Shown piece after piece: positions 21,398 through 36,619 of a DNA stretch of 36,619 bases. This DNA comes from Anaerolineae bacterium (lineage in GTDB: Bacteria > Chloroflexota > Anaerolineae > Aggregatilineales > Phototrophicaceae). The stretch spans positions 1-36,619 of the forward strand of contig JABWBO010000032.1 in NCBI GenBank assembly GCA_013360465.1, written 5' to 3'. A program made the translations under genes and the position numbers. The notes below the pieces were generated by a model. That model saw only the letters and a program-made list of their open reading frames with translations, was not told the DNA's origin and made no database searches. Each line of letters begins with the position of its first letter. The stretch's first letter is position 1.

Positions 21398-24300
21398 ATG
21401 GGTTGGATTCAAGATCTGGTCAATCCCCAGGCGCGCGAGTGGGAGGAGTTCTATCGCAATCGCTGGCAGCATGACAATGTCATCCGCAGCACTCATGGTG
21501 TGAACTGCACCGGGGGCTGCTCATGGGCAGTGTTTGTCAAGGATGGGATCATCACCTGGGAAATGCAGCAGACCGATTATCCGCTGCTTGAAAGCAACCT
21601 GCCGCCCTACGAGCCGCGCGGCTGTCAGCGGGGCATTTCCGCGTCATGGTATGTATACAGCCCGATTCGCGTTAAGTATCCTTACATACGCGGTTCGCTG
21701 ATCGATCTGTGGCGGGAGGCAAAACAGCAGCACACGGACCCAATCGATGCCTGGGCATCGATTGTGGAGGACGACACGAAACGTGCCCGCTACCATCGCG
21801 CACGCGGCAAGGGCGGCTTCCGCCGCACGAGTTGGGATGAAGTGTTGGAGATTATCACCGCTGCCTGTCTGTATACCGCCAAGCAGTGGGGACCGGATCG
21901 CGTGTTTGGCTTCTCGCCCATTCCCGCCATGTCCTTCCTGTCCTATGCCGCTGGTTCGCGCTTCCTGCAGCTCTTCGGCGGCGTCAATATGAGCTTCTAC
22001 GACTGGTATGCTGACCTGCCCAATGCCTTCCCTGAGACGTGGGGCGACCAGACCGATGTCAGCGAAAGCGCCGACTGGTACAACGCCAAGTACATCATCT
22101 CAATGGGTTCCAACCTGAACATGACGCGCACGCCCGATGTCCACTTCATCTCCGAGGCGCGCCATGAGGGAGCCAAGTTTGTGGTCATCGCTCCAGACTT
22201 CAGCCAGGTCGCCAAATATTCCGATTGGTGGATTCCGATCCAGGCTGGGCAGGATACCGCCCTGTGGATGGCTGTTAACCATGTCATCCTCAAAGAGTTT
22301 TACGTCGAGCGCCAGGTCCCCTATTTTCTCAACTACCTCAAGCAGTACACAGATTCGCCTTTCCTGGTGGAGCTTGTGCCGGGACAAGACGGTTATCAGG
22401 CTGGGCAACTCCTGCGCGCCAATCGCGTGGCTCCCTACCAGGAGGTCGAGAACGGCGACTGGAAACTGCTGGTTTTCGACAACACGCGCGGACAGCCTCG
22501 TATGCCCAAAGGTACGCTGGGCTTCCGCTGGCAGCAGAAAGAGGGGCAGTGGAACCTCAAGATGGAGGATGGGCTGGACGACAGTCCGATTGACCCCACG
22601 CTAACCTTTAGAGACGAACACGACGAAATCGCTCAGACCGCCTTCTATGAGTTTGCCAAGGGCAAGGTTTCTTTGCGTGGGGTGCCCATCAAGTACATCG
22701 AGACCGGTGAAGGACGTGTGCCGGTGACGACTGTCTTTGATCTGCTGATGGCTCAATTCGGTGTGGATCGCGGGCTGGGGGGCGACTATGCCACCAGCTA
22801 TGACGAGGCGGACACGCCTTACACACCGGCTTGGCAGGAGCAGTACACAGGCATTGGGCGAGAAACTGTCACCCGCCTGGCGCGCGAGTTCGCCAGCAAT
22901 GCCGAAGCGACCGAAGGGCGCTCAATGATCATCATCGGCGCCAGCATTAATCACTGGTATAACAACAATCTGGCGTATCGCGCACCCATTACGTCGCTGA
23001 TTCTGTGTGGCTGCTGCGGGCGCAACGGCGGCGGCATGAATCACTATGTTGGTCAGGAAAAGCTCAGCCTGGTCGCCCCCTGGACAAGCCTGGCTTTCGC
23101 GCTGGATTGGACTAAGCCGCCTCGTCTCCAGCAGTCACCAACCTGGCACTATGTCAACAGCGACCAGTGGCGATATGAGGGTGATTTCACAGAGTATGCC
23201 CCGATCCCGCCGGAGACGCGCTGGGCGAAGGGACATGCTATGGACATGGAGATACAGGCGGTACATCGAGGCTGGATGCCCTATTATCCCCAGTTTAGCC
23301 ACAACCCGATGCAGCTGGTGACTCAGGCGGAGAACGAGGGGTCCCGAACTCACGAGGAAATCACCAGGTGGCTGGTGGACCAGCTAAAGGCAGGCAAAGT
23401 GAATTTCGCCGTCGAAGACCCCGACGCGCCGGAAAACTGGCCCCGTGTCTGGTTTATCTGGCGCGGCAATGCCATTATGTCCAGCGCCAAGGGGCACGAG
23501 TTCTTTCTGCGCCATTATCTGGGTACGCATGACAATATCGTAGCGCAGGAACACGCCGAGGGGCGGGTCAAACAGGCTGTCTGGCGCGAACCCGCGCCGC
23601 GTGGCAAGATGGACCTGGTGGTAGACATCAACTTCCGCATGGATACATCGGCGTTGTACTCCGACATTGTCTTGCCAACCGCCATGTGGTACGAGAAGAA
23701 CGATCTGAACACCACCGACCTGCACTCTTTCATCCATCCCCTGGGAGCCGCGATACCGCCGGTGTGGGAGGCAAAAAGCGACTGGGACATCTTCAAGTCC
23801 CTTGCCCGGAAGGTCAGCGAGATGGCCCCTTCCGTGTTCCCGAATCCGGTGAAGGACCTGGTCGCCACCCCGCTGCGGCATGACACGCCCGACGAAATGG
23901 CTCAGACGCACATTGCTGACTGGAAGACGGGCGAAGCTGAAGCCATTCCCGGCGTAACCATGCCGCACCTGCACGTCGTGGAGCGCGATTACGCCAACCT
24001 GTACAAACGATTTACGGCGTTTGGTCCGCAGGCGCGCAAAGATGGCATCGAAGGACATGGCGTTCACATCCCGATTGTCCAATTCTACGATGAACTGCTG
24101 CAAAACCCTGTCGGAGGGACGCCTGATCCCCGTCACATGCGCTGCGTGGAATGGGACGGACAGAAGTATCCCAGCCTGGAAGATGCGCTGGATGCAGCCA
24201 ACCTGTTGCTCTATCTGGCTCCGGAGACCAACGGCGAAGTCGCCTATACCGCCTTCAAAGCCGAAGAAAAACGGGTGGGGCTGCCTCTGGCTGACCTTGC

Positions 24301-25045
24301 CGAGAAGGTGCGCAGTGTGCGGATGACTTTCCATGACATCAGTCGTCAGCCCCGGCGCACGTTGATCAGCCCGTGCTGGACAGGCATAGTCAACGATGGA
24401 CGGGCTTACTCTGCCTGGTGCATGGACGTTGAGCGGTTAGTCCCCTGGCGCACGCTGACCGGACGCCAGCATCTCTACCTTGACCATCCCTACTATATTG
24501 ACTTCGGCGAACATCTGCCGACCTTCAAGCCCAAGCTCAACCCGATCAGGACCGGCGACATCGTTGAGAGCTTCCAGGATGACCAGAGCATCGTCCTCAA
24601 CTACATCACGCCGCACGGCAAATGGCATATCCACTCCACCTACTACGACAATCATCGGATGCTCACCCTGTCGCGCGGAATCGAGCCATGCTGGATCAAC
24701 GATAAGGACGCCGAAAGTGTCGGCATTCAAGACAACGATTGGGTGGAGGTCTACAACGACAACGGGGTCATGGTCACGCGGGCAGCCGTCAGCGCTCGCG
24801 TCCAGCAGGGGACCTGCATGATCTACCACTCGCCGGAGCGCACTATCTCTATTCCCAAATCGCAGATACGCGGCGGACGACGCGGCGGCGGGCATAACAG
24901 CCTGACGCGAACGCGCATCAATCCGGTGCAGCTGGCAGGCGGCTACGGGCAGTGGACCTACGGATTCAACTACTGGGGTCCCATTGGGATTATGACCCGC
25001 GACACCTACGCCATCGTGCGCAAGCTGGAAAAGTTGGAGTGGTAA
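21398..25045 (+). CDS. narG: respiratory nitrate reductase alpha subunit NarG
   Basis: 1215 residues, close to the 1247 of E. coli NarG, and colinear with it to the C-terminus. It holds the molybdenum bis-MGD cofactor and reduces nitrate to nitrite. Seen in the sequence: FS0 cluster ligands H33, C37, C41 and C76 ([19 protein letters not shown]), the molybdenum ligand D206 in YDWYADLP, and family blocks such as [45 protein letters not shown] and PWRTLTGRQ. The N-terminus is shorter than in E. coli and shows no twin-arginine signal. CGGAGG precedes the ATG. The frame is intact throughout. Confidence 0.98.
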
Positions 25046-25130
25046 AGAGACCCGATCCCGCTACCTGACTTGGCTGCCCGCGAGGATAGCAGCCGGACGC
25101 CGTGACTTCAAGCAGACAAGGAGTAAAGTG

Positions 25131-26639
25131 ATGGATATCCGCGCCCAGGTCTCGATGGTTTTCCACCTCGATAAGTGCATAGGCTGCCACACATGCAGTG
25201 TTGCCTGCAAGAACATCTGGACTGATCGCAAGGGCACCGAATATATGTGGTGGAATAACGTGGAAACCAAGCCGGGCACCGGCTATCCCACCCTATGGGA
25301 AGATCAGGAGAAGTATCACGGCGGCTGGGAACGAAAAAGCGGCAGCCTGAATCTTCGGCTGCACGGCAGGCTGGGCGGGCTGGCGAACATCTTTTTCAAC
25401 CCCTTCCTGCCGACCGTAGACGACTACTACGAGCCGTGGACATACCAGTACGATGAGCTTTTCAACGCCCCAGAGGGCGACGATCAGCCTACCGCGCGCC
25501 CTATCTCCATGATCACGGGTAAGCACATGGATATCGAAGCCGGGCCAAACTGGGATGATGACCTGGGTGGTTCGCCCGTGTACGCTGCCAACGATCCGAA
25601 TTTGGGCGAGCTTACCGAAGAAGAGCGAAGCCAGCTTAACGAGCTGGAACGGATGGTCTTTTTCTATCTACCCCGCATCTGCAATCACTGCCTGAATCCC
25701 GGCTGCGTTGCCGCCTGCCCCGCTGGCGCTATCTATAAGCGCGGCGAGGACGGCATCGTGCTGATCAGTCAGGAAAAATGCCGCGCCTGGCGTATGTGCA
25801 TCTCCGGCTGCCCCTATAAGAAGGTTTACTACAACTGGTCTACGGGCAAGTCGGAGAAATGCATCCTCTGCTATCCGCGCCTGGAAAGCGGACATGCCCC
25901 AGCCTGCTTCCATTCCTGCGTCGGACGTATTCGTTATCTGGGTCTCCTGCTTTACGACGCGGACCGTATTCATGAGACGACCCTGGCTCCCGATGATCAG
26001 CTTGTCGAAGCGCATCGGGCGATCATCCAGGACCCATTTGATCCCCAGGTAATCGCCGCAGCTAAAGCCAATGGCATCTCCGATGCGATGATCAACGCGG
26101 CGCAGCACTCGCCTGTCTACAAATTCGTCAAGAAGTGGAAGCTGGCTCTCCCCCTCCACCCGGAGTTTCGCACGCTGCCGATGCTCTTCTACGTGCCACC
26201 CATGCTGCCCGTGCTGGCAAAGCTGCGGGAGGGGCATTACGAAATCAGCGGAGTGGGCGATCAGGGATTAGCTCCCATGCTCAGCTCGCTTGAGCGGGCG
26301 CGAATGCCACTCCGTTACATGGCGCACTTATTTTCGGGCGGCAACGAGGAAATAGTCGCGGCAGTCTACCGAAAGCTCATCGCCGTGCGCATCGCCAAAC
26401 GCGCCCAACACGTCAGCGAGGCGACACCGGACGAGGTGCAGCAAGCCATGACCGTCGGAAATACAAACCCGGAGGAGATCGAAGCCATCTTCCAGTTGAC
26501 CTCGAAACCGACCTTTGAAGAACGTTTTGTCATCCCACCATTGGCGCGTGAAATGGCTGTCGAGGCGACCCTCGATCCGTTCACCCATAAGCCTGAGACG
26601 GGCTTCGGCTTCCGCAGAGCGCCGAAGCGGGGAGGGTAA
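25131..26639 (+). CDS. narH: respiratory nitrate reductase beta subunit NarH
   Basis: 502 residues carrying the electron-transfer iron-sulfur clusters of NarGHI. Cysteine groups are C16/C19/C22/C26, C184/C187/C192/C196, C217/C223/C227 and C244/C247/C259/C263. W220 replaces a cysteine in CRAWRMCISGC, the known feature that makes one cluster [3Fe-4S] in this subunit. AAGGAG is 7 nt from the ATG at 25131; the GTG three bases earlier is less likely. It follows narG by 85 nt and narJ starts 2 nt after its stop. Residues about 395-500 are the family C-terminal region. Confidence 0.98.
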   Translation: MDIRAQVSMVFHLDKCIGCHTCSVACKNIWTDRKGTEYMWWNNVETKPGTGYPTLWEDQEKYHGGWERKSGSLNLRLHGRLGGLANIFFNPFLPTVDDYYEPWTYQYDELFNAPEGDDQPTARPISMITGKHMDIEAGPNWDDDLGGSPVYAANDPNLGELTEEERSQLNELERMVFFYLPRICNHCLNPGCVAACPAGAIYKRGEDGIVLISQEKCRAWRMCISGCPYKKVYYNWSTGKSEKCILCYPRLESGHAPACFHSCVGRIRYLGLLLYDADRIHETTLAPDDQLVEAHRAIIQDPFDPQVIAAAKANGISDAMINAAQHSPVYKFVKKWKLALPLHPEFRTLPMLFYVPPMLPVLAKLREGHYEISGVGDQGLAPMLSSLERARMPLRYMAHLFSGGNEEIVAAVYRKLIAVRIAKRAQHVSEATPDEVQQAMTVGNTNPEEIEAIFQLTSKPTFEERFVIPPLAREMAVEATLDPFTHKPETGFGFRRAPKRGG

Positions 26640-26641
26640 TC

Positions 26642-27238
26642 ATGAGTAAGCAAGTTGCTGCGCGACATCTGATGAGCCTGTTCGCCGACATGCTGGACTA
26701 TCCACAGGCGAATCTGCGGGACAGAGTTCAGGAAGCCGAGGCGCTGGCAGGCGCTGCCAACGCTCAAGCCGGGCAGTTTGTCAGCGAGTTCCGCGCCTTT
26801 GTAGAAGAAACCCCGCTGGGTAGTTTGCAGGAAATCTACACGGGAACATTCGACCTGGATGCTGCCTGCCATCCCTATGTGGGCTACCACATGTTTGGCG
26901 AGACCTACAAGCGAAGCCCCTTTCTGGTGGGGCTTAAGGAGCGCTATCGGGCGCATAACTTCGCAGCACCAGCCAACGAGCTGCCCGATCATCTGGCGGT
27001 GGTGCTGCGTTTTCTGGCAGTGTGCGATGATGAGGAGCTGTCCCGCGAATTGATCGACCTGGGACTGCGCACCTGTCTTGAAAAGATGACCGGTGATGTT
27101 GATCCAGATGCATTGACTGAGGAAGGACAGGAACAACCGGAGATCAACCTCGGCGGCTTGAGGGTCTATAAGCAAGTCTTGCGGGCGCTCCAGCTCGTGC
27201 TGCAAGTTCAACCGCAATCCGTTGAGGCTTTACCTTGA
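26642..27238 (+). CDS. narJ: nitrate reductase molybdenum cofactor assembly chaperone NarJ
   Basis: 198 residues of the TorD/NarJ family. These chaperones bind NarG, help insert the molybdenum cofactor and delay membrane attachment; they are not part of the final enzyme. The sequence is mostly helical with family segments SLFADMLDYPQANL, YTGTFDLDAACHPYVGYH, RSPFLVGLKERY-like (here KRSPFLVGLKERY) and PDHLAVVLRFLA. It starts 2 nt after narH with GGGGAGGG upstream, so it is translationally linked. The C-terminus runs to VEALP with no recognisable extra domain. Confidence 0.95.
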   Translation: MSKQVAARHLMSLFADMLDYPQANLRDRVQEAEALAGAANAQAGQFVSEFRAFVEETPLGSLQEIYTGTFDLDAACHPYVGYHMFGETYKRSPFLVGLKERYRAHNFAAPANELPDHLAVVLRFLAVCDDEELSRELIDLGLRTCLEKMTGDVDPDALTEEGQEQPEINLGGLRVYKQVLRALQLVLQVQPQSVEALP

Positions 27239-27261
27239 TTAGGAACCCGACCCACTACGGG

Positions 27262-27283
27262 CACAGGGGGTACACAGGGGGTA
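27262..27283 (+). repeat. tandem 11-bp duplication at the narI ribosome-binding region
   Basis: CACAGGGGGTA occurs twice end to end (27262-27272 and 27273-27283), ending 6 nt before the narI ATG at 27290. Each copy carries a GGGGGT purine run that can serve as a Shine-Dalgarno, so the ribosome-binding site is duplicated; only the second copy is at a usual distance. Confidence 0.75.
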
Positions 27284-27289
27284 CAGACG

Positions 27290-27967
27290 ATGCTAAACAT
27301 AGTCCTGTTTATTGTATTTCCTTACGTCTCCGTTATCCTGGCTGTTGTGGTAGGGAGCTACCGCTACTTCTTTGATCGTTTCACGTATTCCTCCCAATCG
27401 TCGCAGTTCCTGGAGAATCGGAAGCTGTTCTACGGCTCGGTCCCCTGGCACTACGGCGTGATCCTGGTCCTCACGGCGCATGTCCTGGCGCTGCTCTTCC
27501 CTGCCGAATGGGGCATACTCATTGGCGTGCCGATCCGTCTGTACATCCTGGAGGTGACGGGATACATCCTGGCTGCAATTGCGATTCTGGGCATGACGAT
27601 GCTCATCGTGCGGCGGCTGACGGCGATACGCGCCCGCGTTGTGACCTCGCGCATGGACTGGGTGCTGCTGGCGGTACTGCTGGCACAGGTCGTGCTGGGA
27701 TTATGGGTCGCCCTGTTCTACCGCTGGGGAGCGGACTGGTATCTTCATACCGCCGTACCCTGGATTCTCTCTCTGGTGACGCTCAACCCTCAGATTCAGT
27801 ATGTCACGGTCCTGCCTGTGGTGGTTCAACTGCACCTGCTGGGCGGTTTCCTGGTGATAGCCCTGTTCCCCTTCACCCGCCTGGTGCATCTGATGACGTT
27901 CCCCATAACCTATCTATGGCGACCTTATCAGGTGGTGGTCTGGAACCGCCGGGCGCGAAAGCCATGA
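27290..27967 (+). CDS. narI: respiratory nitrate reductase gamma subunit NarI
   Basis: 225 residues, the usual size for the cytochrome b membrane anchor that takes electrons from quinol and passes them to NarH. Five hydrophobic segments are visible. The haem b ligands expected from E. coli NarI are present: two histidines in helix two (PWHYGVILVLTAHVLALLFP) and two in the last helix (VQLHLLGGF and TRLVHLMTFP). It is the last gene of the nar operon; no nitrate transporter (narK) follows. It converges with the uroporphyrinogen-decarboxylase-like gene across 43 nt with no obvious terminator. Confidence 0.96.
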   Translation: MLNIVLFIVFPYVSVILAVVVGSYRYFFDRFTYSSQSSQFLENRKLFYGSVPWHYGVILVLTAHVLALLFPAEWGILIGVPIRLYILEVTGYILAAIAILGMTMLIVRRLTAIRARVVTSRMDWVLLAVLLAQVVLGLWVALFYRWGADWYLHTAVPWILSLVTLNPQIQYVTVLPVVVQLHLLGGFLVIALFPFTRLVHLMTFPITYLWRPYQVVVWNRRARKP

Positions 27968-28010
27968 AGCCGGCGCGCCTGGCGTCGATCAAGCTGATTC
28001 GGTTCGTCCG

Positions 28011-29045
28011 CTAGAGATCGCGGAGGGTGCGCAGCACCGTCGCCATCGACTGCTGCCAGTTGACGGGAAGATGCTCAGAGACACCGAAGGCAAGCCCTCG
28101 ACCGTCAGGCGCGGCTTGCCGCACGCGCTCGCGCACAAGCTGGCTCAGTTCGTCCGCCGGCAGGAGGTAGCTGCCAATATTGAGATTCGACCAGAAGCGC
28201 TTATCGGGCCAGACGGCGCGCGCCTGCGCCAGCGTCAGATCGCCTTCCGGCGGAGCCGTCAGCGATTCGAGGACGTCCATCGGCGCCCGGGCGATTAAAT
28301 CCTTGCACGAAGACAGTTTGCCGTCGTAGTGGGTGCTGACAAACTTACCCGCGCTGTGCAGTATAGGGAATAACTCGTCGTAAACCGGCAGGATCAGTTT
28401 TTGATAACGCGCCGGACCGATCATATCGGCGGAGAAATTCTCTAGCAGATAGATCAGCCTGCCGGGTCCTGCCGCCGCTATCTCGATGGTTCGGCGGAAA
28501 TTGGCGAGCATCGCTTCGTACAGCGCCATCACTTCCGCTTCGAGATCGAACAGATGATAGCCGAGATTTTCCACGCCGGCGTAATCGACCAGGATGACCT
28601 GGATCGGTGTGCGCCCGACGTGAGCCAGCGCCACGCCGAAAGGCGGCAGAGCGCGCTCCTGCTCTAGAAAACGCTCGTAATCCGGCTCGATGACCGCGCT
28701 GCGGACGATGTGCGTCATGATGGCGTAATCGGCGGACGTTTCCAGCAGATACTTCTTGTGCCAGCCATCGACAAATGTCTCTTTGAGGTCGCCGACCGGG
28801 GTATGGAGGGTGCGCTGCTCGATCTCCACCCCCTGCTCGGTCCAGACCTTCGTCCGATATTCGACATCGGGATAGGTCGTCTTGACGGTCGGCAGATGCC
28901 AGGTGACGCCCAGTCCAAGATCGAAGAGCGGCTGCCAGCCGGGGTCGTCCGGCAGGTCACGCCACAGCCACTCGTAAATCGTGTAGGGGATGATGTCCGG
29001 GCGTTCGCCAGCCCAAAAGGCGTGCAGTCGTTCCTGAATGCTCAT
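28011..29045 (-). CDS. uroporphyrinogen decarboxylase (UroD/MtaA)-family protein
   Basis: 344 residues of the UroD superfamily, which includes haem-pathway decarboxylases and the corrinoid methyltransferases MtaA and CmuA. Recognisable segments are VILVDYAGVENLGYH, LPVYDELFPILHSAGKFVSTHYDG and SEHLPVNW. The zinc-binding HxC of MtaA-type enzymes is H-Y-D here (STHYDGKLSSC), though a cysteine follows six residues on. Haem synthesis is unlikely given the operon. This family often appears in carbohydrate clusters of uncultured bacteria without known function. It is the last gene of the seven-gene minus operon, 7 nt after the epimerase-like gene. Methyl transfer or decarboxylation of a sugar-derived compound is possible but unproven. 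Confidence 0.8.
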   Translation of the reverse strand: MSIQERLHAFWAGERPDIIPYTIYEWLWRDLPDDPGWQPLFDLGLGVTWHLPTVKTTYPDVEYRTKVWTEQGVEIEQRTLHTPVGDLKETFVDGWHKKYLLETSADYAIMTHIVRSAVIEPDYERFLEQERALPPFGVALAHVGRTPIQVILVDYAGVENLGYHLFDLEAEVMALYEAMLANFRRTIEIAAAGPGRLIYLLENFSADMIGPARYQKLILPVYDELFPILHSAGKFVSTHYDGKLSSCKDLIARAPMDVLESLTAPPEGDLTLAQARAVWPDKRFWSNLNIGSYLLPADELSQLVRERVRQAAPDGRGLAFGVSEHLPVNWQQSMATVLRTLRDL

Positions 29046-29052
29046 GAGTGCC

Positions 29053-30033
29053 TTACCTTGATACCACGATCCGCTGCCCTTGCTGTTGAATCCGACTCAC
29101 GCGGCTCAGCCCGGTGTAGACCACCATCGCCGCTTCATATTCGATCACTTCACCGGGTTGAATCACCCGCTGCCGTCCCGCTTCGATGGCTTGTTCCAGC
29201 CGCACCGGATAGCCAACCCAGGGTTCAATTGCCAGTTGATACAGTCCGCGCCAGCCGCCATACACCTGCCAGATCCACAGCGCGCGAAAGATATCTGCCG
29301 GGTACACCATGCCAATGCCGATGTGGCGCACCGTGTCGGTCAGCGCAAACCAGTTCTCGCTCAGTTCGGTGGCGTAGTGCCCGCCAAACACGTTTGCTTC
29401 GAACGGCTGCACCCGGCTGGCATCCACGCCGTTGGGCAGCCGGGACCAGGAGTACACCTGCCCCGCTTCGCCCAATGCTGGACCTGACGACTGCCCGACC
29501 CATCCGGTACAGGCGGGCAGATCAATCCGGTGGTTGGGTGTGATGGCAAACACCGGATGAATGCCCCAGATCAGATCGAGCGCGTCCAGTCCTAGATTGG
29601 TCAGCCTGTAGCGCAGGTGAATGACCGCCTGTTCCGGGTCAAGCCGCAGCCAGCGCTCGAAACGCAGCGGCAGCACCGCCGTCCCTACGCCGGTGTACAG
29701 ACCGTCGGGTCCATCGTCGCGCCATTCCCAGGGCAGCGCCCACAGCTCGCCCATGCCTGGCAGGCGCTCGCCGCGATACTCACACGGCTCGGTGGACGGC
29801 AGAATTTCGTCCCAGCCGCCGGGCCAGGTATCATCAAAGCTGGAACCGTATGGGATCGAGCGGGGTAGATTACGCGGGTGATGCCACAGGAGCTGCGTGT
29901 CGCTCGGTTTATGCGTGATGCTGTAGACCCGGGCGCCGGTTTCCGGCAGCACCACCACCTGAAGCTGCGGGTTGTCCAGCACCACCGCACGCAGCCCGTT
30001 GTACTGCCAGCGGCTGTCCAAACGGCTGCTCAT
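29053..30033 (-). CDS. aldose 1-epimerase-like (galactose mutarotase fold) protein
   Basis: 326 residues with the beta-sandwich pattern of aldose 1-epimerase-like proteins: VVVLPETGARVYSITHK near the start, DDTWPGGWDEILPSTEP near 67-83, and WGIHPVFAITPNHRIDLP near 158-175, where the histidine would lie in the sugar-binding cleft. The C-terminal part has AIEPWVGYPVRLEQAIEAG. The catalytic His/Glu pair of true mutarotases cannot be placed with certainty, so the protein may bind or epimerise a sugar, or be a carbohydrate-lyase-like relative. Its start codon abuts the stop of the SDR gene upstream (zero spacing). It presumably acts on the sugar released by the glycosidase of this operon. Confidence 0.75.
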   Translation of the reverse strand: MSSRLDSRWQYNGLRAVVLDNPQLQVVVLPETGARVYSITHKPSDTQLLWHHPRNLPRSIPYGSSFDDTWPGGWDEILPSTEPCEYRGERLPGMGELWALPWEWRDDGPDGLYTGVGTAVLPLRFERWLRLDPEQAVIHLRYRLTNLGLDALDLIWGIHPVFAITPNHRIDLPACTGWVGQSSGPALGEAGQVYSWSRLPNGVDASRVQPFEANVFGGHYATELSENWFALTDTVRHIGIGMVYPADIFRALWIWQVYGGWRGLYQLAIEPWVGYPVRLEQAIEAGRQRVIQPGEVIEYEAAMVVYTGLSRVSRIQQQGQRIVVSR

Positions 30034-30816
30034 CTAGACCACAATCCCCATCGCCGGCGCTAACCCCGCCGAAAATCCACCGTCAATCGTTAACATGCTG
30101 CCGGTGACAAACGCAGCGTCGTCTGACGCCAGGTAGACCACGCCGCTGGCAACTTCCTCCGCCGCGCCGATGCGCCCCAGCGCGTGCAGACGGGACGCCT
30201 GCTCCCGAATGTGCGGTCCCAGCGCAAAGAATTTTGCGTTCATCGGCGTCTCGATCCAGCCCGGGCAGATTCCATTGACGCGAATGCCCTCGATGCTGTG
30301 ATCCATCGCCAGGGCGCGCGTGAGCTGGGCAATACCGCCTTTGCTGGCGCAGTAGGCTGCGATACCCCCTTCGGCGAAAAAGCTGTTGACCGATGCCATA
30401 TTGACAATGACACCTCCCTGTCCCTGCTTGCGGAACTGAATCACGGCGTATTTGGCGCAGAAAAATGTGCCCTTGAGATTGACGCCGATCAGCCGGTCAA
30501 ATTCGGCTTCGGTGGTATCCACCGCGTTTTTTTCCAGCATGATCGCTGCGTTGTTGACCAGGATGTTCAGCTGTCCGAAGTGGCTCACGCTGTCCGCCAC
30601 CGCCCGCTCACAGTCTTCCACGCGCGATACATCCGCCGGAATGAATACCGCCGTGCCCCCCTGCTCGGTGATCGTCTGCACGGTCTCGGCGCCCATCGTC
30701 GGGTTGATGTCCGCCACCGCGATACGCGCGCCTTCCTGCGCCAGCCGCACCGCCGTCGCCCGTCCGATCCCCGACGCTGCGCCGGTGATAAGCGCCACGC
30801 GATCCTTCAGCCTCAT
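30034..30816 (-). CDS. short-chain dehydrogenase/reductase (SDR), complete catalytic set
   Basis: 260 residues from the chosen start, a classical SDR: TGAASGIG at 11-18, NNAA at 88-91, serine in NMASVNS near 141 and Y155-x3-K159 (YCASK). ADINP after the second strand suggests NAD. The frame extends to 30828, but the ATG at 30816 has GGAG 6 nt upstream and gives the usual MRLKDRVALITG start. It probably oxidises or reduces a hydroxyl of the sugar handled by this operon. It is followed without a gap by the epimerase-like gene and preceded by a second, atypical SDR. Confidence 0.92.
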   Translation of the reverse strand: MRLKDRVALITGAASGIGRATAVRLAQEGARIAVADINPTMGAETVQTITEQGGTAVFIPADVSRVEDCERAVADSVSHFGQLNILVNNAAIMLEKNAVDTTEAEFDRLIGVNLKGTFFCAKYAVIQFRKQGQGGVIVNMASVNSFFAEGGIAAYCASKGGIAQLTRALAMDHSIEGIRVNGICPGWIETPMNAKFFALGPHIREQASRLHALGRIGAAEEVASGVVYLASDDAAFVTGSMLTIDGGFSAGLAPAMGIVV

Positions 30817-30853
30817 CATTTGCTCCATTTCGTCTGAGTGTACAGAGAGTTCA

Positions 30854-31630
30854 TCACCCTTTCAGTCCGCCGCCAGCCGCCAGCCAACCGCCATCCACCA
30901 CCAGAATATGCCCGGTCACATAGGACGCTGCCTGCGAAGCCAGAAACACCGCCGCCCCGGCACAGTCTTCCGGCTCGCCCAACCGATTGAGCGGAATCTT
31001 AGCTAAGCGGCTGGCGCGCACCTCCGGGTTGGACAGCAGTCCCAGCGTCTGACCAGTCACGATGGTTCCCGGCGCGATGGCGTTGACCCGGATGCCATAC
31101 GGCGCCCATTCAATCGCTTGAGCGCGCGTCATGGCGCCGATTCCCCCGTTGCCGGTCACATAAGACGCCTGGTTCGGCACGCCGAAGAAATTCGAGAGCG
31201 ATGCGATGTGGATGATGCTGCCGCCCTGCCGCAGCATAGACTCGGCAGCCGCCTTCGCCAGAAAGAAGCGCGCTTTCAGGTTCAGCCCGATGACGGTTTC
31301 CCAATCGGCATCCGTCATTTCCAGCGCCGGCTTGCGCACGATCGTGCCCGATGACGTGACCAGGATGTCCAATCCGCCCAGCGCGCTGACTGCCGCTTCA
31401 ACCAGCTGCGCCGGCGCATCCGGCTGGCGCAGATCCACCGGCAGCACGACGGCTCGCGTTCCGGCTGCGCGCACCAGCGACGCCGTCTGTTCGAGTTCCG
31501 CTTCACTGCGGCTGGCAAGCGCCACATCCGCACCCTGCCGGGCAAGCGCAGCGGCGATGCCCTGCCCAATACCCCGCCCGGCGCCGCTCACCAGCGCCTT
31601 TTTGCCTTCCAGCGAGAACAGGTTGTTCAC
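30854..31630 (-). CDS. SDR-fold protein lacking the catalytic lysine
   Basis: 258 residues beginning at a GTG that overlaps the aminotransferase stop (GTGA). The Rossmann motif is present (SGAGRGIGQG, about 15-24), and S144 and Y157 are in place, but the YxxxK lysine is asparagine: Y157-V-T-G-N161 (SYVTGNGG). The NNAG motif is also altered to TSSG (LVTSSGTI). The fold is otherwise complete to the C-terminal VTGHILVVDGG. Loss of the lysine normally abolishes classical SDR catalysis, so this may be a non-catalytic partner of the intact SDR next to it, or use another chemistry. The gene is not otherwise degraded. Confidence 0.88.
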   Translation of the reverse strand: MNNLFSLEGKKALVSGAGRGIGQGIAAALARQGADVALASRSEAELEQTASLVRAAGTRAVVLPVDLRQPDAPAQLVEAAVSALGGLDILVTSSGTIVRKPALEMTDADWETVIGLNLKARFFLAKAAAESMLRQGGSIIHIASLSNFFGVPNQASYVTGNGGIGAMTRAQAIEWAPYGIRVNAIAPGTIVTGQTLGLLSNPEVRASRLAKIPLNRLGEPEDCAGAAVFLASQAASYVTGHILVVDGGWLAAGGGLKG

Positions 31631-32946
31631 AGCACGTCGCTGATCGCCAGCGCCAGCCGCTCGACCATCTCATCAATCTGCTCGCGGGTGATGATCAGCG
31701 GGGGACCGAACGACACCATGTCCGGCGCGCCGCGCACCACCAGACCGCGCTCACGCGCCGCTCGTTCGATGCGCCGACCGATGTCGCTGCGAGCGACGCC
31801 GCTGGTATTGTCCTGTTTGAACTCCACGCCCCACCACAGCCCCAGCCCGCGCACATCGGTGATCGCCGGGAAATGCAGCTTCAGCGACTCCAGCCTTTGC
31901 CCCAGGTAAGGTCCAACTTCAGCCACATGCGCCAGCAGATGACGGCTCTCAAAATAGTCCAGCACCGCCAGCCCCGCCGCGCACGCCAGCGGATTGCCGG
32001 CAAAAGTGTGCCCGGCGTTGAACTGCACCCGCGCCTGAGTTTCACCCCAGAAGGCATCCGCCACTTTGTCGGATACGATGGTCGCCGCCAGCGGCGCATA
32101 TCCGCCGCTCATCCCCTTGCCGGTACACAAAATATCGGGCCAGACGCCAGCCTGTTCGGCATAAAACAACGTACCGGTGCGCCCGAAACCGGTGATGACC
32201 TCATCGTAAACCAGCACAACGTTGTGTCGATCGCAGATTTCGCGGAGGGACTGGAAATAGCTCGCCGGGGGCCAGACCAGCCCCTCAACGTTCATCACCG
32301 GTTCGATCACCACCGCCGCCACCGTCTCTGGACCCTCGCGGCGGATCGCCTCTTCGAACTGCAACACACAGGAAATCGCGCACTGCCCGGCATCCAACCG
32401 CAGCGGGCAGTGCGCGAAATTGGGCGGATGCACATGCACCATGCCGCCCATCATCGGCTCAAACGTGGTGCGCCGCGCCTCCACCCCCGACGCGCTCAGC
32501 GCGCCCAGTGTGCCGCCATGATATGAGCCGTAGGTGGCGATGACTTTGAACTTCTCCGGGTGTCCGGTCTGCTTCTGATACTGCCGCGCCATCTTGATTG
32601 CCGCCTCGACCGCTTCCGAACCGCCGCTGGCGAACTTGACGACATTGAACTGCGGCGGCGTAAGCTGGCTGATGCGCTCCGCCAGTTGAATCGCCGGCGG
32701 GTTGGTGCTGGCAAGCGGCGGCGCGAACGTCAGCCGGTGGAGCTGTTCCATGATGGCTTCGATCACCGTCATGTTGTTATGCCCCACGCTGACGACAAAC
32801 ACGCCTGCAAGACCATCAATGTACTGGCGTCCCTGGTCATCCCACAGATAGATGCCCTCGGCGTGATCGACGACAAACGGATTTTCAGAGAAATCCTTCA
32901 TCTGCTGAAAATCGACCATCAAGCGCGACACCGGCTTTCGGGTCAT
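31627..32946 (-). CDS. class III pyridoxal-phosphate aminotransferase
   Basis: 439 residues of the class III (omega) aminotransferase family. The PLP lysine is K277 (CTGKGMSGG), preceded by D248 in VYDEVITGFGRTG; the phosphate-binding GSEAVEAA is near 109-116 and the GSYHGGTLGA loop near 140-149. Members move amino groups between amines or amino acids and keto acids or aldehydes; relatives act on beta-alanine, taurine, GABA or amino sugars. It lies 6 nt after the glycosidase gene and overlaps the atypical SDR by 4 nt. In this operon a keto sugar or aldehyde made by the SDRs would be a reasonable partner, which is inference. Confidence 0.92.
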   Translation of the reverse strand: MTRKPVSRLMVDFQQMKDFSENPFVVDHAEGIYLWDDQGRQYIDGLAGVFVVSVGHNNMTVIEAIMEQLHRLTFAPPLASTNPPAIQLAERISQLTPPQFNVVKFASGGSEAVEAAIKMARQYQKQTGHPEKFKVIATYGSYHGGTLGALSASGVEARRTTFEPMMGGMVHVHPPNFAHCPLRLDAGQCAISCVLQFEEAIRREGPETVAAVVIEPVMNVEGLVWPPASYFQSLREICDRHNVVLVYDEVITGFGRTGTLFYAEQAGVWPDILCTGKGMSGGYAPLAATIVSDKVADAFWGETQARVQFNAGHTFAGNPLACAAGLAVLDYFESRHLLAHVAEVGPYLGQRLESLKLHFPAITDVRGLGLWWGVEFKQDNTSGVARSDIGRRIERAARERGLVVRGAPDMVSFGPPLIITREQIDEMVERLALAISDVL

Positions 32947-32952
32947 GATGTC

Positions 32953-35562
32953 TTATCCCTTTCGAATCGTAGTCATCACCACGCCCGGTTTGAGCTGCGC
33001 CGCCGCCGGCAGCGTGATGAGCGTACCCCCCTCAACCGCTGCGTACTGAGCCGGCAGATCTGCGCCATCGAGCTGCACCGCCGTCACGCCCGGCAAGCCG
33101 ACACGCCAGGAACGCACCGTCTGCCGCCCATAGTCGCAGCGCATCTGCGCGCGGGTCTCATCTTGGCTGTACGTCCCCCAACCGGAGCCGGTTGACCAGA
33201 AACAGCGGAATGCCGCCGGCGACCACGCCGGTTTGAATCCGACATGATCCACCGTGAGATCGCACTCGAAACCGGACAGCGCCAGCAGCAGCCCCCACGA
33301 AGCCAACGCACGGGCGTAATGGCTGCCGCACTCGATCTCGTTCCAGGGGTTGCGCCGCTGTCCGTCATAGCGCGCCCGCGCCCCGGCTACGATTGCCAGA
33401 CCTTCTTCGATCAATCCCTCATACATCATATGGCTGGCGACCTGATACTCGATCCCCGTCCATACCTCGTCGCTGTAGACAAACGGCAGATCCGGACGAC
33501 TGCCGTTCGGCCAGGTACACAGGAGCAGCCCCGCCTCGTTACCCAGCGCGAACACCCGCTGCGCATTGTGATGATCGGCAAGCGAAGCCCGGAAATTGTG
33601 CCGATAAATCGCGCGCAGGGTCTCAAGCACATGATCGCGGTCAAGTATGGAGCCAATACCACACACCCGCGCCATCCACGCGCCGATCACCTGGTCAGAC
33701 AGGCAGCCGCTGCCATACTGGTACTTCGGAACGCCGGCGCGCTGCCCACCCAGGCTGCGATCAGTCTCGAACGGCGTGTAGCGGGCTGCCTCTGGGTCAA
33801 TTCGCTGCTCATAGTAGCTGCCATTGAACAGGTTCTGATCGGTCCAGCGCGCCCCGACTTCAGCCAGCGCGGCATAACGCTGGGCGGACGAGTCCTCACC
33901 CACCGCCCGCGCCATCTCCGCGCCGCAGCGCAGCGCCCCCAGATACCAGCTCTGCATCATGCTGTTGGGACCAAAGAACTCGATGTCGTAGGTGTTGTGC
34001 TGCAAACCCTCCATCACGCCGTCCTGGTTGTAATCCCAGTAGCGCCAGGCATATTCCAGCGACCGTTTAACACCGTGCCACAGCCCCCGCAGCCATTCGG
34101 TATCCCCGCTCAGCTTCCAGTCTCGGTAAACCTGCATCACCCCGCCCATCTGACCATCTGCCGCCGGGTGGAAGTCCAGCGGGGGCGATCCCAGCGGCAG
34201 CGACAGGCGGAAAATCATGCGCCCATCCTCAAACTGGTTGTAGACGTAGTCGTTATGGCGCATGGAGCGCTCGAGCTGTGGAAAGAGATAGGCGTGGGTC
34301 AGCGCGTAGTTCCAGACATGCTGGCACGATCCCTCGCAGCAGCCGGCGGTTGAATGGACGCCTTCAAACCCATAGAACGAGCCGTCTTCCAGAAGAGTCA
34401 CCGTCGGCGACTTGAGGATGGACATCTGGCTGGTGACCGCATCCACCACCTCCACAGGCAGTGTCGAGTCGAACAGCGCATCGTGAAATGCCTGCGTCTC
34501 GCGGCGCAGACGGGCTTCATGCTGGGCAGCGTAGCGCGCCACCTCGAGCGCATCGCCAAATCGCCGCGCGTAGGGTACTCGCCATGTGGCTGAATCCGGT
34601 CCGGCGGGGCGGTAGCTGTCCGCCCAGTACTTGATGAAGTGCGGGAAATGCCAAGCCATCAGCAGCGGCAGAGTCTGGCTCTCGCCCGGCTTCAGCACGA
34701 CATGCAGCGCCAGCGACCCGGTGTCGCTGACATTTTCGGGCGATGGATCGGCATAGACCCGATCAGCCAGCCGCCCGGTGCTGGAAAACTCGTCCCAGAA
34801 CACCTGCAAACTGTCGAACCATGCGCCCCGCAGCCATGCCGTCTGGTGGCTGATATCCTGCCAGGGGGTCGCCAGCGCCATCGTGCCGCCATAGGGTTTG
34901 TCGGGCGTGAAGTGTTCGCTGCTCATCACGATGGCTGACAAACCCGGCTCCTGGATGAAACGGTTGACGTTCTGTTTGCCCGTTCCCTTGAATTCGCCGT
35001 GTTCGACATAGCTGAAAGCGCCATAGCCCCGGTAGCCGACCGCGTTAAACAGGTTAGCCGCCAGCGACACCTCAACGTCCTCGCTGCCAGGATTCGTCAG
35101 CGTAAACGCAAAGATACCGACCGGCAGCCCGGAGTCTTCAACGTTCAATGGGATGAAGGGATTGTAAGCCATCAGCGATACCTGGACCGGCAGCGCCGGG
35201 TCTGCGAAATCAACCCAGGCAAACGGATACTCGCCGCGAAACGTGTTGCCCTGCATGTGGCGCAGACCAGCGCCAGTCTCGCGCCGCGCGCCAAAGCCGA
35301 AGCCGTAGTAGTTGCTGCCGATCACATCGCCAATCAGCGGCACATCGGGCCAGCTCTCCAGCACACGCGCGTCTACTGCGCCGCGCGCGGTACGGGTCCA
35401 GATCGAGAAAAAGGTATTGGGCAGCAGGCAGGACTTATTAGGACGGTGGAAGATCTCCCAATCGACCAGCGCGCCGCGCCCAGAGAGCGAAAAACAGCCG
35501 GTGCCGATGCCGCCAATCGGGAACGCGATGGTACGCAGTTGGGCATTGGAATAGAGGGTCAT
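32953..35562 (-). CDS. GH116-like glycoside hydrolase (GBA2/DUF608-type)
   Basis: 869 residues. The N-terminal half has the GBA2-type beta-sandwich start (IAFPIGGIGTGCFSLSGRG, residues 12-30). The C-terminal half is an alpha/alpha barrel with CEGSCQHVWNYALTHAYLFP, WDYNQDGVMEGLQHNTYD and FGPNSMMQSWYLGALRCGAEM. D526 in HNTYDIEFFGP is the likely acid/base aspartate by analogy with GH116; the nucleophile glutamate cannot be placed with certainty, as this branch has CEGSCQHVWNY where human GBA2 differs. There is no signal peptide, so it should act in the cytoplasm, for instance as a beta-glucosidase, beta-xylosidase or beta-N-acetylglucosaminidase-like enzyme. It lies 5 nt after the oxygenase gene and 6 nt before the aminotransferase. 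Confidence 0.88.
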   Translation of the reverse strand: MTLYSNAQLRTIAFPIGGIGTGCFSLSGRGALVDWEIFHRPNKSCLLPNTFFSIWTRTARGAVDARVLESWPDVPLIGDVIGSNYYGFGFGARRETGAGLRHMQGNTFRGEYPFAWVDFADPALPVQVSLMAYNPFIPLNVEDSGLPVGIFAFTLTNPGSEDVEVSLAANLFNAVGYRGYGAFSYVEHGEFKGTGKQNVNRFIQEPGLSAIVMSSEHFTPDKPYGGTMALATPWQDISHQTAWLRGAWFDSLQVFWDEFSSTGRLADRVYADPSPENVSDTGSLALHVVLKPGESQTLPLLMAWHFPHFIKYWADSYRPAGPDSATWRVPYARRFGDALEVARYAAQHEARLRRETQAFHDALFDSTLPVEVVDAVTSQMSILKSPTVTLLEDGSFYGFEGVHSTAGCCEGSCQHVWNYALTHAYLFPQLERSMRHNDYVYNQFEDGRMIFRLSLPLGSPPLDFHPAADGQMGGVMQVYRDWKLSGDTEWLRGLWHGVKRSLEYAWRYWDYNQDGVMEGLQHNTYDIEFFGPNSMMQSWYLGALRCGAEMARAVGEDSSAQRYAALAEVGARWTDQNLFNGSYYEQRIDPEAARYTPFETDRSLGGQRAGVPKYQYGSGCLSDQVIGAWMARVCGIGSILDRDHVLETLRAIYRHNFRASLADHHNAQRVFALGNEAGLLLCTWPNGSRPDLPFVYSDEVWTGIEYQVASHMMYEGLIEEGLAIVAGARARYDGQRRNPWNEIECGSHYARALASWGLLLALSGFECDLTVDHVGFKPAWSPAAFRCFWSTGSGWGTYSQDETRAQMRCDYGRQTVRSWRVGLPGVTAVQLDGADLPAQYAAVEGGTLITLPAAAQLKPGVVMTTIRKG

Positions 35563-35567
35563 AATAT

Positions 35568-36443
35568 CTATTCGTGGGCGCGGGTGATCATATTCTCTTT
35601 CACCACCAGTTCAATCACCGGTTCGCCTTCCTGGTCAACCCACACGCCGCATTGCGTCGCGCCCTCGCTGATGCCCAGATCCACGACACTGCCATCCATG
35701 CGCAGCACCGGATGATAGAATTCACCGACCTTCTGCGCGTCACCCACAATGTAGTGTCCGATGAGCGACCGGCGGAAGCGGTCGGTCGTCGTGTTGGCAA
35801 AGCTGCCGTGTACCAGCGAGCCGTTGAAAAACAGCACGTCACCGGCGCTCATCAGCACCGGCGTGGGTGTAACGCCCTCCGGCAGAGGCACTGTGACATC
35901 AGTGAAGCTCTGGGTGGTATCGGCAGGCACTGTGCATAGAATTTCCCAGTTCTGGCTGCCGGGCACTACCTGCATACAGCCGTTGGCTTCGTCGCAGTCA
36001 TCCAATGCCAGCCATGCCGCCATGCAGGTTCCTGGCTGCACCCTGAGGTAGAGCTGATCCTGGTGCAGCGCCTGTCCGCGCGCGCCCGGCGGCTTGAAAT
36101 ACAGCATGGTCTGCGCAGCATAAGGCTCCCTGCCCAGCAGCAGGGTGAGAATTTCATTCAGCCGCTCGTCCACCAGCCAGTCAAACGATGTCTTGTCCCA
36201 GCGGTGCATTTGCAGCATGCGAGGATACTGCTGGAGCGGATCCGGCTTTTCGTCAGGGATTGCAGCCCGCACAGTCGGGTCTGCCGTCCGTTTGATCGGC
36301 ACGCCGGCGAAGTCGCCGGGCTTCCGACCTTCCTCTCGCAGCGCCATGAAGTGCGCCCGAAACGTGGTCACTTCTTCTTTGCTGTACAACCCACGCGCCA
36401 CATAGTAACCATTTTCACCATAGAAAGCAGCCGGATCGGTCAT
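35568..36443 (-). CDS. phytanoyl-CoA dioxygenase (PhyH)-family iron(II)/2-oxoglutarate oxygenase
   Basis: 291 residues of the PhyH family. The iron-binding triad is H127-Q-D129 (ALHQDQLYL) and H212 (GSLVHGSFANTT), and arginines R222/R224 are placed to hold 2-oxoglutarate. Members hydroxylate lipids, amino acids, antibiotics or other small molecules, sometimes causing demethylation or ring changes. AGGAGG lies 7 nt before the ATG, a strong site for the first gene of the operon. It heads a glycosidase, aminotransferase and dehydrogenase operon, so its substrate may be a glycoside or methylated sugar; that is inferred from context only. Confidence 0.92.
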   Translation of the reverse strand: MTDPAAFYGENGYYVARGLYSKEEVTTFRAHFMALREEGRKPGDFAGVPIKRTADPTVRAAIPDEKPDPLQQYPRMLQMHRWDKTSFDWLVDERLNEILTLLLGREPYAAQTMLYFKPPGARGQALHQDQLYLRVQPGTCMAAWLALDDCDEANGCMQVVPGSQNWEILCTVPADTTQSFTDVTVPLPEGVTPTPVLMSAGDVLFFNGSLVHGSFANTTTDRFRRSLIGHYIVGDAQKVGEFYHPVLRMDGSVVDLGISEGATQCGVWVDQEGEPVIELVVKENMITRAHE

Positions 36444-36530
36444 GCCGCCACCTCCTGTATCGCACTCTATTCTCGGTCATCTACCTTAAGATAATGGCAG
36501 AGCCTTGGCTCACACTGCCGCTCAGAGACT
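36444..36530 (-). promoter_or_regulatory. leader of the oxygenase/glycosidase operon
   Basis: The stretch contains the Shine-Dalgarno AGGAGG (complement of 36451-36456) for the oxygenase gene, and upstream an AT-rich segment around 36480-36495 where a promoter could lie. I do not find a -35/-10 pair at good spacing, and none of the TCGACAA-type sites seen in the rhamnose-like locus, so this operon is probably under different control. Confidence 0.4.
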
Positions 36531-36533
36531 GTT

Positions 36534-36607
36534 TGAAAAGCCGGTTTTCACACAACCTCACCCCGGAAACCTGACGGTTTCCTGCCCCTCTCCAATTGGA
36601 GAGGGGC
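36534..36607. repeat. cluster of palindromes, probable interspersed intergenic repeat
   Basis: Three hairpins lie in a row at the right edge: TGAAAA/TTTTCA (36534-36550), GGAAACC/GGTTTCC with a 4-nt loop (36565-36582), and a perfect 24-bp palindrome at 36584-36607 with arms GCCCCTCTCCAA and TTGGAGAGGGGC. Tandem palindromes with CCCCTCTCC-type cores are common interspersed repeats in Chloroflexota and cyanobacteria, but no second copy is present here. The window ends 12 nt beyond, so its full length is unknown. Confidence 0.6.
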
Positions 36608-36619
36608 GGTTGAGCGCAG

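What the first reader, a model, noticed from the sequence alone, without database searches (positions are those of the whole stretch)
28011..36443. Operon of oxygenase, GH116-like glycosidase, aminotransferase, SDRs, epimerase and UroD-like protein
Seven genes with gaps of 0-25 nt or 4-nt overlaps form one transcript beginning with an Fe(II)/2-oxoglutarate oxygenase. I know of no described pathway with this set. The order suggests intracellular hydrolysis of a glycoside, oxidation and transamination of the product, and a possible methyl-transfer or decarboxylation step. No transporter is included. This is the best candidate in the window for an undescribed catabolic system.
Basis: partly seen in the sequence, partly recalled or inferred. 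Interest (0 to 1): 0.6.

Follow-up and report, generated by a model that had tools for sequence, protein, structure and literature searches.

The report
Uptake-and-breakdown gene block, sugar-linked amines
In an uncultured Chloroflexota bacterium the seven genes are one half of a sharply bounded 17-gene block that also encodes an importer, and the set looks built to take in and dismantle an unidentified sugar-linked, perhaps N-methylated, amine.

Summary
The seven genes are real, complete and operon-like. "No transporter" is a contig-end artefact: the contig stops 176 nt upstream of the oxygenase inside a high-copy repeat. Contig C184 of the same genome ends in the same repeat (58-bp identical overlap) and carries the divergent half: Opp-type importer, GATase, IclR, amidohydrolase, DUF6282, MmgE/PrpD, GH4. 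A near-identical genome has the 17-gene block on one contig; homology stops 4 and 26 bp beyond the outermost genes. Two genomes of a second genus keep 13 of the 17 genes, rearranged, at 63-75% identity, plus BHMT-like, SoxBDAG and DAO genes. Distant GATase relatives lie beside MttB genes in 6 of 12 stretches examined. GH116 is closest to exo-beta-D-arabinofuranosidase ExoMA2. Best reading: import and dismantling of a small amino glycoconjugate, possibly N-methylated. The substrate is unknown; no SoxA or MttB was found in the window genome, so a methyl step there is unproven. My literature searches found no such locus.

The parts
35568..36443 (-). PhyH-family Fe(II)/2-oxoglutarate oxygenase, first gene of the operon; H127-x-D129 and H212 present
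   Evidence: PF05721, 126 bits; motifs (motif meaning recalled); orthologs 66% in G042 and G052
32953..35562 (-). GH116 glycosidase, ExoMA2-like
   Evidence: (ExoMA2 8ic6, 490.9 bits, against 112.9 for the TxGH116 beta-glucosidase); ExoMA2 residues E431, H446, R483 and D557 (named in PMC10509167 passages) align to E400, H415, R452 and D526 here
31627..32946 (-). class-III (omega-type) aminotransferase with TGKG motif (PLP lysine, recalled)
   Evidence: (PF00202, 342.7 bits)
30854..31630 (-). KduD-like SDR; catalytic YxxxK reads Y157-VTG-N161; not found in the G042/G052 version
30034..30828 (-). SDR dehydrogenase with intact YxxxK
   Evidence: 75% in G042 and G052
29053..30033 (-). DUF4432-like protein with galactose-mutarotase fold
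   Evidence: sub-threshold DUF4432; model pLDDT 93.0, Z 30.8 to 3ty1, 301 residues, rmsd 2.9
28011..29045 (-). UroD-like protein, URO-D/MtaA fold, H239-x-D241 where MtaA-type enzymes have H-x-C (MtaA motif recalled)
36527..36619 (.). part of a high-copy MITE-like repeat inserted in the divergent oxygenase/importer spacer; likely cause of the contig break
   Evidence: 58-bp identical overlap with the end of contig C184; at least 40 near-full copies in the genome
28007..28010 (.). right boundary of the block: DNA homology to G064 starts at 28007; beyond lies narGHJI (by eye), not found in the G064, G042 and G052 stretches held

Best explanation
The seven genes are one half of a discrete 17-gene catabolic block. 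An Opp/Dpp-type ABC importer brings in a small charged amino glycoconjugate. Two glycosidases, GH4 and GH116 (neither with an export signal that I can see by eye), cut it inside the cell. The mutarotase-fold protein and an SDR oxidise the released sugar. The PhyH oxygenase, UroD-like protein, class-I GATase, MmgE/PrpD protein and class-III aminotransferase strip and rework the amine- and acid-bearing part. In a second genus the set includes a BHMT-like methyltransferase and a heterotetrameric sarcosine-oxidase-like enzyme, and distant relatives of the GATase/importer pair often lie beside MttB genes. The amine is therefore most likely N-methylated in at least part of the family. Shown: gene content, boundaries, importer, conservation, folds. 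Inferred: direction (breakdown), order of steps, every substrate, and the N-methyl part above all.
For: Importer half found in the same genome on a contig sharing a 58-bp repeat end with the window. Complete block on one G064 contig, DNA homology ending 4 and 26 bp beyond the outermost genes. G042 and G052, two genomes of one other genus, keep PhyH, GH116, AT3, SDR1, DUF4432-like, UroD, SBP, OppB, OppC, OppDF, GATase, MmgE and GH4 in a different arrangement at 63-75% identity. Purifying selection on 7 of 7 window genes. SoxBDAG, BHMT-like and DAO2 lie between PhyH and UroD in G042 and G052. Among 12 stretches fetched from 12 of the 27 other genomes with GATase hits, 8 carry importer genes and 8 carry MttB genes; in 6 MttB is the same-strand neighbour of GATase; AT3 in 3, MmgE in 3 (MttB checked by Pfam on examples). 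In 2 of 16 DUF4432 stretches, both from one genus, AT3, DUF4432-like, a UroD-family gene, MttB and a corrinoid protein are consecutive. In a further one (L103) DUF4432-like, GH116 and AT3 relatives lie within 7 kb.
Against: No SoxA was found in the window genome (a search without a positive control) and no MttB in any of the 4 block-bearing genomes (whose control rang), so N-demethylation has no candidate of known type there; BHMT was not searched genome-wide. The UroD-like protein lacks the H-x-C motif. MttB is very abundant in some distant genomes (22, 20 and 11 matches in the three tested), so some adjacency is expected by chance, and two of the 12 GATase stretches come from one genus. The block itself was found in only 4 genomes of two genera, two of them near-identical. 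PhyH orthologs occur without it in 45 of 48 loci scanned, though several of these are short contigs; UroD orthologs without it in 3 of 7 genomes; and a 72% GH116 ortholog lies beside sugar-ABC genes. No biochemical evidence exists.
Confidence: 0.47

Rival explanations
1. D-arabinofuranoside (D-arabinan) use: GH116 releases beta-D-arabinofuranose, the mutarotase-fold protein and SDRs feed an oxidative pentose pathway, and the other genes are accessory.
For: ExoMA2 is the best solved match by a wide margin and its four residues named in the paper passages are conserved. Mutarotase-fold protein, KduD-like SDR and an Amidohydro_2 protein fit a non-phosphorylative sugar route (fit recalled). GH172-family (DUF2961) genes are present in 4 of 4 block genomes.
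Against: GH183 endo-D-arabinanase (DUF4185) not found in 4 of 4 block genomes (its 14 control genomes rang in none, so the only sign that the search works is a sub-threshold match in G142). GH172 is on other contigs, or in G042 about 190 kb away on the same contig. The importer is peptide/opine type, not sugar type. No sugar-acid dehydratase of the usual kinds or aldolase was seen in the block. Does not explain aminotransferase, GATase, Sox or BHMT.
Confidence: 0.15
2. A specialised-metabolite biosynthetic block (amino-sugar or betaine product) with a dedicated transporter and glycosidases for maturation.
For: PhyH, class-III aminotransferases, SDRs and GATases are common in biosynthesis (recalled). 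Sharp boundaries and patchy distribution suit a mobile biosynthetic cassette. In G042 two glycosyltransferase-family genes follow GH116, though in G052 other genes do.
Against: The transporter is a binding-protein-dependent importer, regulators are IclR and GntR types, two glycosidases are present, and Sox/BHMT are degradative in the systems I know. No assembly-line enzyme or glycosyltransferase inside the 17 genes.
Confidence: 0.12
3. Co-located genes of several unrelated pathways.
For: Several members occur without the others elsewhere: PhyH, UroD, GH116. The block is known from two genera only.
Against: Thirteen genes kept together in two genera although the arrangement and flanks changed; block edges at gene ends.
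Confidence: 0.18

Closest known systems
D-arabinan utilisation locus of Microbacterium arabinogalactanolyticum (ExoMA2, GH116 subfamily 4; PMC10509167, passages)
   Same: GH116 closest to ExoMA2, catalytic and two substrate-recognition residues conserved; glycosidase without signal sequence near a putative importer
   Different: No GH183 found; peptide/opine-type importer; aminotransferase, GATase, PhyH, UroD, MmgE/PrpD and GH4 added
Glycine-betaine demethylation systems (BHMT or MtgBCDE, then dimethylglycine and sarcosine demethylation; PMC12478193, passages)
   Same: G042/G052 versions carry BHMT-like and SoxBDAG; distant GATase/importer loci carry MttB, some with a corrinoid protein and two with a pterin-binding protein
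   Different: No Sox or MttB found in the window genome; glycosidases and importer type differ
Opine-type uptake and oxidation loci (recalled)
   Same: GATase and AT3 relatives beside SoxA/SoxB-like amine-oxidase genes in G213 and G296 (L233, L244), with Opp-type importer genes in L233
   Different: Glycosidases and mutarotase-fold protein are not part of those

Membership tests
GH116 subfamily 4 (ExoMA2-like exo-beta-D-arabinofuranosidase) | closer to ExoMA2 than to GH116 beta-glucosidases | tested here: met
   490.9 against 112.9 bits; no tree was built
GH116 subfamily 4 (ExoMA2-like exo-beta-D-arabinofuranosidase) | nucleophile Glu431, acid/base Asp557, recognition Arg483 and His446 | tested here: met
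   4 of 4 aligned identical; residues named in PMC10509167 passages; the offset of 4 between chain and paper numbering is my reading
GH116 subfamily 4 (ExoMA2-like exo-beta-D-arabinofuranosidase) | activity on beta-D-arabinofuranosides | not testable with these tools
   no assay
D-arabinan degradation locus | GH183 endo-D-arabinanase present | tested here: not met
   0 of 4 block genomes (no control genome rang)
Betaine (N-methyl) demethylation locus | first methyltransferase (BHMT or MttB type) in the genome or locus | tested here: inconclusive
   window genome: no MttB and no BHMT-like gene in the block; genome-wide BHMT not searched. A BHMT-like gene is in the locus of G042 and G052
Betaine (N-methyl) demethylation locus | sarcosine/dimethylglycine oxidase module | tested here: not met
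   no SoxA in G000 at 1e-20 (no positive control in that search); SoxBDAG in G042 and G052
Uroporphyrinogen decarboxylase (URO-D) family | URO-D fold | tested here: met
   Z 22.5 to 1r3y, 291 residues, rmsd 3.5, tied with other URO-D chains
Uroporphyrinogen decarboxylase (URO-D) family | Pfam URO-D score over its cut-off | tested here: not met
   12.6 against 23.9 bits
MtaA-type Zn methyltransferases | H-x-C zinc motif | tested here: not met
   H239-x-D241, both invariant in 15 of 15 aligned; motif recalled
Aldose 1-epimerase / mutarotase | galactose-mutarotase fold with conserved His and Glu | tested here: met
   Z 30.8 to 3ty1, 301 residues, rmsd 2.9; H159 and E270 invariant in 17 of 17; their catalytic role is recalled and not mapped on the structures

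The most novel reading that the evidence does not exclude
The block encodes a so far undescribed pathway for glycosylated betaines: a sugar-linked quaternary amine is imported by an Opp-type transporter, deglycosylated inside the cell by GH4 and GH116, hydroxylated by PhyH and demethylated by interchangeable modules (MttB/corrinoid, BHMT plus SoxBDAG, or, in the window organism, a UroD-fold protein with an H-x-D site acting as a new kind of methyltransferase or lyase), and the primary amine is finally transaminated.
Probability: 0.15. Interest if true: 0.75.

Novelty: new variant of a known kind. Interest (0 to 1): 0.48.

Why it matters
It ties several orphan family members (UroD-like with H-x-D, DUF4432-like, PhyH, GATase, MmgE/PrpD) into one testable unit with defined ends and an importer whose binding protein can be screened against metabolites. 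If the N-methyl reading holds, it points to a class of natural amino glycosides and a demethylation route for which I found no description. It also shows how a contig end can hide the most informative genes.

Tried and rejected
'No transporter': rejected. Wide PhyH-based conservation of the block: rejected. The genome-contig scan with the PhyH alignment gave 65 loci. I scanned 48 for block genes; the other 17, L161-L177, at 24-34% identity, were not scanned. Only 3, all Chloroflexota MAGs, carry the block. The other 45, several of them short contigs, show only scattered low-identity hits, among them AT3-like in 5, GH116-like in 2 (L135, L136), and SDR- or Opp-like in a few; subgroups have neighbourhoods of their own. 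Plasmid searches: PhyH 2 records of about 48% identity whose stretches list no annotated features; UroD and GATase none. D-arabinan reading: weakened by the failure to find GH183. The UroD protein in the parallel operon of G213 is not detectably related to the window's UroD by BLAST (E 0.21), so that parallel is at family level only. In G042 and G052 an apparent 250-aa gene between AT3 and SDR1 was a wrong-strand frame; the gene there is a GntR regulator. In one search the L042 stretch was read in a frame with stops and gave nothing. The promoter/terminator scan gave counts close to chance (3 against a mean of 2.2; 8 against 5.5). Amidohydrolase and MmgE/PrpD comparisons with solved structures gave only distant matches. 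Neighbourhoods of GH116 were fetched for 18 of the 61 other GH116-bearing genomes of the order; the rest were not looked at. Papers: PMC10509167 and PMC12478193 seen as passages; all others only as search listings with starts of abstracts; two searches returned nothing. VIA-align gave second looks at Foldseek's own matches.
Full report
OBSERVATION. The seven ORFs are present as described on the minus strand. The spacings from the first gene on are 5, 6, -4, 25, 0 and 7 nt. Pfam assigns PhyH, GH116 (both domains), Aminotran_3 and two SDRs. The mutarotase-like and UroD-like proteins fall below Pfam's cut-offs. Predicted structures (pLDDT 93.0 and 94.4) place them with galactose mutarotases (Z 30.8 to 3ty1, 301 residues, rmsd 2.9) and with URO-D (Z 22.5 to 1r3y, 291 residues, rmsd 3.5, tied with other URO-D chains; the methyltransferase 4ay7 at Z 21.1, 286 residues, rmsd 3.9). 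Motifs: PhyH has H127-x-D129 and H212, the aminotransferase TGKG, SDR1 YxxxK, while SDR2 reads Y157-VTG-N161 in place of YxxxK (motif meanings recalled).

THE MISSING HALF. The window is a whole contig (C254, 36,619 b) that ends 176 nt upstream of the PhyH gene. A near-identical genome, G064 (its contig is JAEURA010000089.1, an Anaerolineae MAG, by length), has all seven genes in the same order at 93-99.6% protein identity. Divergently from PhyH it has SBP_bac_5, OppB, OppC, fused OppDF, a class-I GATase, an IclR regulator and an Amidohydro_2 protein, followed by DUF6282, MmgE/PrpD and GH4. The window's own genome carries the same ten genes at the end of contig C184. The ends of C184 and C254 share 58 identical bases inside an insertion of about 129 bp that G064 lacks. 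A 95-nt query from it gave 80 matches in the genome, of which 40 are near-full copies of 90-100% identity; only 40 of 136 candidates were scored, so this is a lower bound. The junction itself has not been seen on one read or contig of this genome.

A DISCRETE BLOCK. DNA homology between the two near-identical genomes (97.2-97.5% over most of the block, 92.4% in the alignment at the GH4 end) begins at window 28007, four bases beyond the UroD gene, and on the other side ends 26 bases beyond the GH4 gene. Beyond these points the stretches compared (28 kb of the window and 8 kb of C184 against about 5 and 7.7 kb of G064) show no match at E 1e-5; the only further matches are weak ones (68-71%) from C184's other Opp genes to the OppDF gene of the block. 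NarG and NarH, next to the block in the window, are not found in the G064, G042 and G052 stretches held. The block is therefore a unit of about 20 kb and 17 genes. dN/dS for the seven window genes against G064 is 0.03-0.22; UroD has a higher dS (0.20) than the others (0.03-0.11).

CONSERVATION. Of 154 genomes of the order, 62 have a GH116 match at 1e-60 and 7 have a UroD match at 1e-30, but only 4 (G000 and G064 of genus g1; G042 and G052 of genus g3) were found to have the block; GH116 neighbourhoods were fetched for 18 of the 61 other genomes. SDR2, IclR, Amidohydro_2 and DUF6282 were not found in these stretches. They add a GntR regulator and, directly after PhyH, a homocysteine S-methyltransferase-family (BHMT-like) gene with NC and CC motifs, SoxB, SoxD, SoxA, SoxG, a second DAO-family oxidoreductase and then UroD. 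Outside these genomes, PhyH orthologs (44-71% identity) are found in Chloroflexota and other phyla but without the block in 45 of 48 loci scanned. UroD orthologs in G001, G008 and G012 have no other block gene nearby, apart from weak Opp- or SDR-like hits, and a 72% GH116 ortholog in G142 sits beside a sugar-type ABC transporter. In G221 (L103) relatives of DUF4432-like, GH116 and AT3 (30, 41 and 38%) lie within 7 kb.

WIDER RELATIVES. The GATase has distant relatives in 27 other genomes of the 396 sampled in the class. I fetched stretches from 12 of the 27, two of them from one genus. Eight of the 12 hold importer genes related to the block's (L233, L235, L236, L237, L238, L239, L240, L243). 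Eight of the 12 hold MttB-family genes (L234, L235, L236, L238, L239, L240, L242 at its edge, and L244), in six of which MttB is the immediate same-strand neighbour of the GATase. AT3 is present in 3, MmgE in 3, Sox-like amine oxidase genes in 2. L241 has none of these near the GATase. MttB, corrinoid-protein and pterin-binding assignments were checked by Pfam on examples and extended by BLAST. In G213 and G240, of one genus, AT3, DUF4432-like, a UroD-family protein of another kind, MttB and a corrinoid protein are consecutive: two of the 16 DUF4432 stretches examined, out of 38 other genomes with hits. A caution: the three such genomes tested hold 22, 20 and 11 MttB matches.

MECHANISM. GH116 is by far closest to the exo-beta-D-arabinofuranosidase ExoMA2 (490.9 bits against 112.9 for a GH116 beta-glucosidase), and the two catalytic and two recognition residues that PMC10509167 names (passages) are identical in the alignment. 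In the four block genomes no GH183 endo-D-arabinanase was found (no control genome rang), while GH172-family genes exist elsewhere in all four, so D-arabinan use is not the simplest reading. Opp-type importer, GH4 and GH116, mutarotase-fold protein, SDR, aminotransferase, GATase, MmgE/PrpD and regulators of IclR/GntR type point to import and breakdown of a small, charged amino glycoconjugate. The BHMT/Sox set in G042 and G052 and the MttB company of distant GATase/importer loci suggest an N-methylated amine, with exchangeable demethylation modules. For the window organism this last step is weak: no SoxA found, no MttB, and the UroD-like protein has H-x-D rather than H-x-C. Nothing here shows the substrate, the order of steps, or that the direction is breakdown.

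VERDICT. Real, conserved in two genera, larger than described; assembled from known families; no matching description found. I rate it a new variant of known catabolic loci with a substrate that can be sought directly through its binding protein.

Noticed in passing
36527-36619 (and G000:C184:49748-49842): MITE-like repeat of about 129 bp whose ends read GAGACTGTTTG... and ...CAAACAGTCTC, with at least 40 near-full copies in the genome; here inserted between two divergent genes, where it might affect expression.
   Followed up: partly
30854-31630: KduD-like SDR whose YxxxK motif is Y-VTG-N, yet under purifying selection (dN/dS 0.05).
   Followed up: no
L093:6853-17411 (G213), L095 (G240): Parallel gene run: sugar-type ABC importer, corrinoid protein, MttB, UroD-family protein with H-x-C, DUF4432-like, class-III aminotransferase, AP_endonuc_2, Asp/Glu racemase (the importer and the last two checked in L093 only).
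   Followed up: partly
L062:1440-6199 (G064): Three URO-D genes and a B12-binding protein just outside the block in G064; no match to them in the 8 kb next to the block in the window genome.
   Followed up: no
21398-27967: Apparent complete narGHJI nitrate-reductase operon ending next to the block; identified by eye from the ORFs, NarG and NarH not found in the G064, G042 and G052 stretches held.
   Followed up: no
28011-29045: UroD gene has higher dS (0.20) against G064 than its operon neighbours (0.03-0.11), which may mean a separate history.
   Followed up: no
L134, L137, L147: Close PhyH relatives (59-63% identity) in named strains, Ktedonobacter robiniae, Ktedonobacter sp. SOSP1-85 and Aestuariimicrobium kwangyangense, outside any such block; possible sources for enzyme tests.
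   Followed up: no
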